This document shows, in pieces, positions 56,797 to 57,362 of a DNA stretch of 64,000 nt (the stretch's first letter is position 1; every line of letters starts with the position of its first letter). Made by a program: the position numbers and the translations under genes. This stretch comes from Clostridiales bacterium CHKCI006. GTDB lineage: Bacteria > Bacillota_I > Bacilli_A > Erysipelotrichales > Coprobacillaceae. Location of the stretch: the NCBI GenBank assembly GCA_900018345.1, contig FCNA01000129.1:62001-126000 (forward strand), written 5' to 3'. The notes below the pieces were generated by a model. It was not told the DNA's origin. It saw only the letters and a list, made by a program, of their open reading frames with translations, and searched no databases.

Positions 56797-57213
56797 TTAA
56801 TCAATCATAATTTGTTTCTTCTCAGGAATCTTTTTAACTTCCTTAGGGAAAGTCACTTTCAATTCACCGTTATCAAAGCTGGCTTTGATATCCTGCTCCG
56901 TCACTTCATCGCCGACATAGAAGCTGCGGCTGAATGTTCCGGCATATCTTTCCTGACGAATCACATTGCCTTTTTGGTCTTTTTCTTCGTTATTGCTGTT
57001 GCGGCTTGCCGCGACTGTCAGATAACCATTTTCCAGATCCATATGGATATCTTCCTTCTTCACGCCTGGAAGCTCCATATCCAATAAATAATAACCATCT
57101 TTCTCACTGATATCCGTTCTCATCACATGACTATTGTTGCCTGTAAAGAATGGACGATCAAACATATCATCAAATGCATCACTAAAGAAACGATCTACGG
57201 GATAAAATTTCAT
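56797..57213 (-). CDS. hsp20: Hsp20/alpha-crystallin family small heat shock protein
   Basis: 138 residues. ATP-independent holdase chaperone. Alpha-crystallin domain from MRTDISEKDGYYLLDMELPGVKKEDI to the GELKVTFPKE strand, with C-terminal extension KIPEKKQIMID. The N-terminal FFSDAFDDMFDRPFF is a typical short sHSP arm. A CIRCE element overlaps a near-perfect promoter about 100 bases upstream, so HrcA control is expected; the leader itself may fold onto the start codon. Confidence 0.94.
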   Translation of the reverse strand: MKFYPVDRFFSDAFDDMFDRPFFTGNNSHVMRTDISEKDGYYLLDMELPGVKKEDIHMDLENGYLTVAASRNSNNEEKDQKGNVIRQERYAGTFSRSFYVGDEVTEQDIKASFDNGELKVTFPKEVKKIPEKKQIMID

Positions 57214-57320
57214 ACTTCAACACCTTACCTTTCACATCCTACGGTTGATTAAGCAGCCGTTCACTATGAAATTTCATGACTTATTTTCCTTTTTGCAGCC
57301 CATCTTCCGACTACACTTAT

Positions 57321-57348
57321 ATTATAGCACTTCTTTTAGCACTGTCAA
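57321..57348 (-). promoter_or_regulatory. Promoter of hsp20
   Basis: Minus strand TTGACA (57343-57348), 16-base spacer, TATAAT (57321-57326); both hexamers are perfect. Transcript start near 57314. Confidence 0.88.
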
Positions 57349-57362
57349 TAGGAGAGTGCTAT
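57336..57362. promoter_or_regulatory. CIRCE operator (HrcA site)
   Basis: TTAGCACTG, nine bases, GAGTGCTAT against the consensus TTAGCACTC-N9-GAGTGCTAA: one mismatch per arm. It covers the -35 of the hsp20 promoter. Confidence 0.85.

What the first reader, a model, noticed from the sequence alone, without database searches (positions are those of the whole stretch)
57205..57314. hsp20 leader complementary to its own start region: possible RNA thermometer
On the minus strand the leader holds the palindrome ATGAAATTTCAT (57266-57277). Its AAATTTCAT half is the exact complement of the start region ATGAAATTT (57205-57213). Pairing would hide the start codon and could melt on heating, adding to CIRCE control.
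Basis: inference. Interest (0 to 1): 0.6.

Follow-up and report, generated by a model that had tools for sequence, protein, structure and literature searches.

The report
Heat-shock mRNA with hidden start codon
In a whole order of gut bacteria, the messenger RNA of a small heat-shock protein carries a stretch that pairs with its own start codon, and the two sides have changed together in evolution, which fits a heat-opened translation lock that is in no catalogue of known RNA families we could search.

Summary
The leader palindrome ATGAAATTTCAT (57277-57266, minus strand) can form 13 contiguous pairs with the start region of hsp20 (AUGAAAUUUUAU, 57213-57202). In this one sequence it is only marginal (fold z about -1; duplex p = 0.03). 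Comparison decides it. hsp20 leaders across the order Erysipelotrichales carry an arm complementary to their own start codon, and the two sides covary (GGUAG/CUACC, GGUAA/UUACC, GAUAG/CUAUC, GGUGA/UCACC). Leaders pair better with their own start than with swapped starts: z = -8.6 for 52 leaders and z = -6.0 with about one per genus, 0 of 20,000 and 0 of 50,000 permutations. A model built on 19 leaders finds others not used to build it; on 28 of these the covariation score is 0.41, against 0.15 shuffled and about 0.1 slid. hsp20 genes from other orders in the class, also under CIRCE, show nothing (z = -0.4), and other CIRCE genes of this genome lack the long leader. No Rfam family matches. Best reading: a start-codon-masking RNA thermometer, with the Shine-Dalgarno mostly open in relatives, acting below CIRCE/HrcA control. 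The structure is well supported; heat response is inferred. The 12-codon upstream ORF is not conserved.

The parts
56797..57213 (-). hsp20 coding sequence (138 aa, MKFYPVDRFF...), small heat-shock protein
   Evidence: ORF; Pfam HSP20 E = 3.6e-20
57337..57361 (-). CIRCE operator (HrcA site) TAGCACT-N11-AGTGCTA overlapping the -35 box
   Evidence: sequence; pattern hit G000:C103:119337-119361
57321..57348 (-). sigma-A type promoter TTGACA-16-TATAAT (12 of 12); transcription start inferred near 57314
57193..57314 (-). whole element (leader plus first 21 nt of hsp20) matched by covariance model R1
   Evidence: E = 6.2e-8, 60.2 bits (this sequence was among the 19 used to build the model)
57295..57314 (-). 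5' hairpin H1: GUAGUC (57314-57309) with GGCUGC (57300-57295); the position is conserved with strong covariation in relatives
57265..57277 (-). anti-start arm AUGAAAUUUCAU plus A57265; 5' strand of the start-masking helix P2
   Evidence: conserved and covarying in relatives
57202..57214 (-). 3' strand of helix P2: U57214 plus AUGAAAUUUUAU, containing the hsp20 start codon (57213-57211)
57242..57260 (-). inner conserved block ACGGCUGC...CAACCG (possible hairpin H2 with one C-A mismatch, or alternative partner of the Shine-Dalgarno region)
   Evidence: near-invariant in 11 leaders of one subgroup; function unknown
57221..57226 (-). Shine-Dalgarno sequence AAGGUG, inside the loop closed by P2
   Evidence: sequence; predicted opening cost at 37 C 7.9 kcal/mol in this leader, 0.1-3 kcal/mol in many relatives

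Best explanation
The hsp20 leader is a conserved RNA element that hides its own start codon. After transcription from a HrcA/CIRCE-repressed promoter, the 5' end folds into a small hairpin (H1). An anti-start arm then pairs with the AUG and the next 3-5 codons (helix P2), closing a loop that holds a second variable hairpin and the Shine-Dalgarno sequence. At normal growth temperature this keeps translation low. On heating, the AU- and GU-rich P2 helix melts and the 30S subunit, which may already reach the Shine-Dalgarno sequence, engages the start codon. This would be a zipper-type RNA thermometer giving a second, translational layer under CIRCE control. Shown by comparison: both helices exist and are selected as RNA; the element is specific to hsp20 and to this order. 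Inferred: that it lowers translation. Inferred and untested: that temperature opens it.
For: Leader pairs with its own start: 31 of 83 non-redundant leaders p < 0.05 and 12 with p at or below 0.01 against dinucleotide shuffles. Own versus swapped starts: -10.43 versus -7.73 kcal/mol, z = -8.6; about one per genus z = -6.0, 0 of 50,000; among starts that all read ATGAAATT z = -5.5, so the fixed MKF codons do not explain it. Covariation: 0 of 500 shuffles on a plain MAFFT alignment; on 28 matches not used to build the model, score 0.411 against 0.152 shuffled and 0.08-0.10 slid, 99 compensatory cells. RNAalifold finds the 7-pair start helix unaided. G-U pairs point to RNA. All four hsp20 genes of this genome match, the fourth with a different leader. 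Specificity: CIRCE-controlled hsp20 of other orders z = -0.4; the other exact-CIRCE units of this genome (hrcA, clpB, htpG) have leaders of about 45 nt. Opening cost 10.7 kcal/mol at 37 C against a window median of 4.8; predicted opening rises about 30-fold from 37 to 46 C against a median of 6-fold.
Against: No temperature data exist here. The predicted cost of opening in this leader stays high even at 46 C (8.8 kcal/mol), so without helpers it might be a constant brake. Some relatives (short-leader group, and L024, L026, L018) lack the pairing. For this leader alone folding is no better than shuffles. Transcription starts are predicted, not mapped.
Confidence: 0.72

Rival explanations
1. The helix is a real, constant translational brake, or is opened by something other than heat (a chaperone, an RNA-binding protein, a small RNA). 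CIRCE alone gives the heat response and the helix keeps basal Hsp20 low.
For: The predicted opening cost stays 8-9 kcal/mol at 46 C. The inner block CAACGGCUGC...ACAACCGC is conserved beyond what a helix needs, as a protein-binding site might be.
Against: The gene is a small heat-shock gene, the classic thermometer target. Predicted heat sensitivity is high, and the 37-to-46 C change in opening is of the order computed for the E. coli ibpA leader (30-fold and 16-fold). The helix is AU/GU-rich.
Confidence: 0.2
2. The leader is an upstream-ORF element: ATG AAA TTT CAT AGT GAA CGG CTG CTT AAT CAA CCG TAG (12 codons, MKFHSERLLNQP) is translated and controls hsp20.
For: In the window the ORF has a plausible Shine-Dalgarno (AGGA), and the frame is also intact in both other near-identical copies.
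Against: No conserved upstream ORF: many related leaders have no ATG there (ATTTCATT, ATTTCGTT, ATTTTATA), and where one exists the frame, length and stop differ. The complementarity is conserved instead.
Confidence: 0.04
3. Chance self-complementarity: the hsp20 protein starts MKF and an AT-rich leader happens to hold ATTTCAT.
For: On this leader alone the signal is marginal (fold z -1, duplex p = 0.03).
Against: Swap tests and covariation across genera, and absence in other orders.
Confidence: 0.01
4. The structure mainly serves mRNA stability (5' hairpin H1) and the start pairing is a by-product.
For: H1 sits at the predicted 5' end and covaries strongly; 5' hairpins are proposed to stabilise ibpA mRNA (PMC3669281).
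Against: It does not explain why the start-region helix itself covaries separately from H1.
Confidence: 0.03

Closest known systems
Synechocystis hsp17 RNA thermometer (PMC4477652)
   Same: Small heat-shock gene; the abstract describes the start codon paired in one stem of the structure.
   Different: hsp17 is a single small hairpin with start codon in stem I and ribosome-binding site in stem II; here a long-range helix closes a 50-90 nt domain with a separate 5' hairpin, and in many relatives the Shine-Dalgarno is predicted open.
ROSE elements of ibpA and other small heat-shock genes (PMC3669281; Rfam ROSE families)
   Same: 5' leader of a small heat-shock gene, second control layer under transcriptional heat control, stable 5' hairpin plus a regulatory helix.
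   Different: ROSE pairs the Shine-Dalgarno with a U(U/C)GCU motif and leaves AUG unpaired in the Pseudomonas forms; here the AUG and first codons are paired, the motif is absent and no Rfam family matches.
fourU thermometers (e.g. Bacillus subtilis blyA, PMC10586365; Salmonella agsA)
   Same: Zipper-type masking of the translation start region; blyA shows that thermometers occur in Firmicutes.
   Different: No run of four U opposite the Shine-Dalgarno; a different pairing partner.
E. coli rpoH thermometer (own knowledge)
   Same: The start codon and early codons are masked by long-range pairing.
   Different: In rpoH the partners lie in the coding region; here the partner lies in the leader.
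CIRCE/HrcA heat-shock control
   Same: The promoter of this hsp20 carries a CIRCE operator.
   Different: CIRCE works on DNA and transcription; the element described here lies downstream of it and is found even on operon-internal hsp20 genes (in L058, and the second gene of L019) that have no CIRCE.

Membership tests
RNA thermometer (general) | RNA structure in the 5' leader that occludes Shine-Dalgarno and/or start codon | tested here: met
   Start-codon helix conserved with covariation
RNA thermometer (general) | Structure opens on heating and translation rises | not testable with these tools
   Only predicted: about 30-fold more open at 46 than 37 C
RNA thermometer (general) | Controls a gene whose product is needed at raised temperature | tested here: met
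   Pfam HSP20, E = 3.6e-20
ROSE element | U(U/C)GCU motif pairing with the Shine-Dalgarno; Rfam match | tested here: not met
   No UUGCU or UCGCU in the leader (sequence); no Rfam hit
fourU thermometer | Four U paired with the Shine-Dalgarno | tested here: not met
   No UUUU in the leader; no Rfam hit
CIRCE-regulated heat-shock gene | TTAGCACTC-N9-GAGTGCTAA at the promoter | tested here: met
   Seven-plus-seven core exact, 2 mismatches to the full consensus, overlaps -35
Upstream-ORF regulated leader | Conserved upstream ORF | tested here: not met
   ORF census over 48 leaders

The most novel reading that the evidence does not exclude
A new, order-wide class of heat-responsive RNA switches in Erysipelotrichales that locks only the start codon and first codons while leaving the Shine-Dalgarno accessible, so that a 30S subunit can wait on the mRNA and start as soon as the helix melts, double-gated with HrcA/CIRCE.
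Probability: 0.5. Interest if true: 0.75.

Novelty: new variant of a known kind. Interest (0 to 1): 0.62.

Why it matters
RNA thermometers are usually found one by one and seldom have strong comparative support. This one has clear covariation across some two dozen or more genera, gives a searchable model, and concerns gut bacteria for which I found no described thermometer. It also gives a natural test of whether masking only the start codon, with an open ribosome-binding site, is enough for heat control, and of how transcriptional (HrcA) and translational heat control combine in Firmicutes.

Tried and rejected
Single-sequence folding was uninformative (z about -1). Base-pair probabilities at several temperatures barely changed, so free-energy costs of opening were used instead. 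The upstream ORF was examined and rejected as a conserved feature. Rfam at gathering and relaxed thresholds gave nothing on the element. RNAalifold on the model-fitted alignment A5 returned no structure, so A5 is used only for pair counts, with the caveat that it was fitted to the model; the swap tests do not depend on any alignment. In alignment A1 one row (L071) was given wrong coordinates by me; A1 was not used further. One model hit outside the order (L169, E = 0.004) is not before an hsp20 (frame with stops) and is taken as false. The 2024 survey of 50 bacterial genomes lists two thermometer candidates (PMC11109978) whose identity is in supplements I could not open; its main text does not mention hsp20.

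Full report
Observation. On the minus strand the window holds an hsp20 gene at 57213-56797 (Pfam HSP20, E = 3.6e-20). Upstream lie a CIRCE operator (57361-57337) that overlaps a perfect promoter TTGACA-16-TATAAT (57348-57321), and a leader of about 100 nt. The palindrome ATGAAATTTCAT is at 57277-57266 as reported, with 0.04 expected by chance in the window. It can form 13 contiguous pairs with U57214 and AUGAAAUUUUAU (57213-57202), and the minimum-energy fold has them. By itself this is not convincing: fold z about -1, duplex p = 0.03.

Relatives. The window belongs to a genome (G000) of the same order as Amedibacillus dolichus, i.e. Erysipelotrichales (the A. dolichus locus L038 and L051 from genome G080 have the same leader). 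I collected hsp20 loci over the order and extracted the leaders that follow a CIRCE. Most long leaders share one plan: CIRCE, promoter, a hairpin right after the predicted transcription start, an arm ending in ATTTCAT or a variant, a variable stretch, a Shine-Dalgarno GAGGCGAU, and the start ATGAAATT... The arm follows the start region in sequence. Examples (arm / start): GGTAG-TT-ATTTCGT / ATGAAAT-TC-CTACC (L003); GGTAAATAATTTTAT / ATGAAATTTTTACC (L009); AGTAATTTCA / TGAAATTACT (L013); GATAGATTTCAT / ATGAAGTACTATC (L087); GGTGATATATTTTCAT / ATGAAGTATTCACC (L088); GTTCAAGATTTCAT / ATGAGACTTGTACC (L071); GGGATATATATCGTAT / ATGCGTTATATTCC (L095).

Tests. (a) Against dinucleotide shuffles of the leader, 31 of 83 non-redundant leaders have p < 0.05 and 12 have p at or below 0.01. 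(b) Swap test: 52 leaders pair with their own start at a mean of -10.43 kcal/mol and with others' starts at -7.73 (sd of permuted means 0.31), z = -8.6, 0 of 20,000 permutations; within the 24 whose start begins ATGAAATT, z = -5.5, 0 of 20,000. With about one leader per genus (35 leaders), z = -6.0, 0 of 50,000. This answers the objection that MKF codons and ATTTCAT meet by chance, and needs no alignment. (c) On a plain MAFFT alignment of 19 leaders (A2), RNAalifold finds the 7-pair start helix unaided; with H1 and the extended start helix named, 0 of 500 shuffles reach the observed paired cells or covariation score, and slid versions fall to 35-49% paired against 83.8%. (d) A covariance model from those 19 (R1) matches at E of 0.01 or better in 37 of 315 genomes of the order, 24 of 79 genera, under strict filters; the matches inspected lie at hsp20 starts. 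On 28 matches not used to build it, the covariation score is 0.411 against 0.152 shuffled and 0.08-0.10 slid, with 99 compensatory cells; the 5' hairpin and the start helix both contribute. That alignment is fitted to the model, so (b) carries more weight. G-U pairs at several positions point to RNA rather than DNA.

Specificity. All four hsp20 genes of this genome carry the element: three near-identical copies (window, L031, L032) and a diverged fourth (L033) whose leader arm GGTGCGATTTCGT fits its own start ATGAAATTCTACC. The other exact CIRCE sites in the genome precede hrcA, clpB and htpG (identified by reading the start of the frame), whose leaders are about 45 nt with a second CIRCE-like repeat in them and no such arm. 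Eighteen hsp20 genes of other orders in the class, most with CIRCE, show no own-start preference (z = -0.37). The R1 model found nothing credible outside the order in 395 genomes drawn from the class. The element also stands before operon-internal hsp20 genes without CIRCE (second gene of L019, another in L058), so it does not depend on CIRCE.

Mechanism. The common feature is a masked start codon. Predicted cost of opening the start region at 37 C is 10.7 kcal/mol in the window, against a median of 4.8 for 58 long frames in the window, hsp20 included; long hsp20 leaders as a group cost more than these frames (p = 1e-4). Scrambling the arm alone lowers it to a median of 3.8. The Shine-Dalgarno is much cheaper to open in many relatives (0.1-3 kcal/mol), though 7.9 in the window. 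Predicted opening rises about 30-fold between 37 and 46 C, against a median of 6-fold for the window's frames and 16-fold for the E. coli ibpA Shine-Dalgarno-to-start region computed the same way. I conclude that the most likely role is a zipper-type RNA thermometer, at about 0.72. The existence of the helix is near certain; repression of translation is very likely; opening by heat is an inference from the gene, the site masked and predicted energies. A constant brake, or opening by another factor, is the main rival (about 0.2).

Comparison with what is known. RNA thermometers mask the Shine-Dalgarno and/or the start codon (PMC8612567). ROSE elements of ibpA pair the Shine-Dalgarno with U(U/C)GCU and leave AUG free in the Pseudomonas forms, beside a stable first hairpin that may stabilise the mRNA (PMC3669281); this leader lacks that motif. 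It lacks fourU. Synechocystis hsp17 pairs its start codon in a single small hairpin (PMC4477652, abstract only). No Rfam family matches, and paper searches for thermometers with CIRCE, with hsp20, in Firmicutes or in Erysipelotrichaceae gave no description of it. It works like a thermometer; formal membership waits for a temperature experiment. I rate it a new variant of a known kind.

Limits. Transcription starts are predicted. Loci are not phylogenetically independent; the one-per-genus test reduces but does not remove this. Only open-licence papers could be searched.

Noticed in passing
G000:C103 (window 56797-57361), G000:C15:13165-13726, G000:C95:3506-4067 (L031, L032, L175, L176): Three dispersed hsp20 copies, 97-98% identical in protein; similarity covers promoter, leader and coding sequence and stops at the stop codon. 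Genome G041 likewise has three near-identical copies. Why this unit is multiplied is unknown; contamination of a draft assembly (3.6%) is not excluded.
   Followed up: partly
window 57260-57242; L048, L049, L050, L038, L059, L060, L078, L081: Inside the loop, CAACGGCUGC...ACAACCGC is almost invariant in one subgroup of leaders, more than a hairpin would need; it might pair with the Shine-Dalgarno region with regular mismatches or bind a protein.
   Followed up: partly
L133, L135-L137, L174: hrcA, clpB and htpG of this genome each have two CIRCE-like sites about 46 bp apart, the second inside the short leader next to the Shine-Dalgarno, so it is transcribed and could fold as a hairpin.
   Followed up: partly
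L043, L044, L045, L047 (leaders of hsp20 starting MPSIFGE or similar): hsp20 genes with a different N-terminus have a conserved leader word (C/U)UAAG(C/U)(A/G)U about 38-48 nt upstream that can pair with AUGCCUAG at their own start: possibly the same design with unrelated sequence.
   Followed up: partly
L033 (G000:C100), leader of about 215 nt: The fourth hsp20 has an unusually long leader with several strong inverted repeats before the start-masking arm.
   Followed up: no
L090, L096-L100, L107-L121, L127, L131: Many f2 genomes have short hsp20 leaders in which a small hairpin (e.g. UAAGG...CCUUA) lies at or near the Shine-Dalgarno; no start pairing. Perhaps a separate control type.
   Followed up: no
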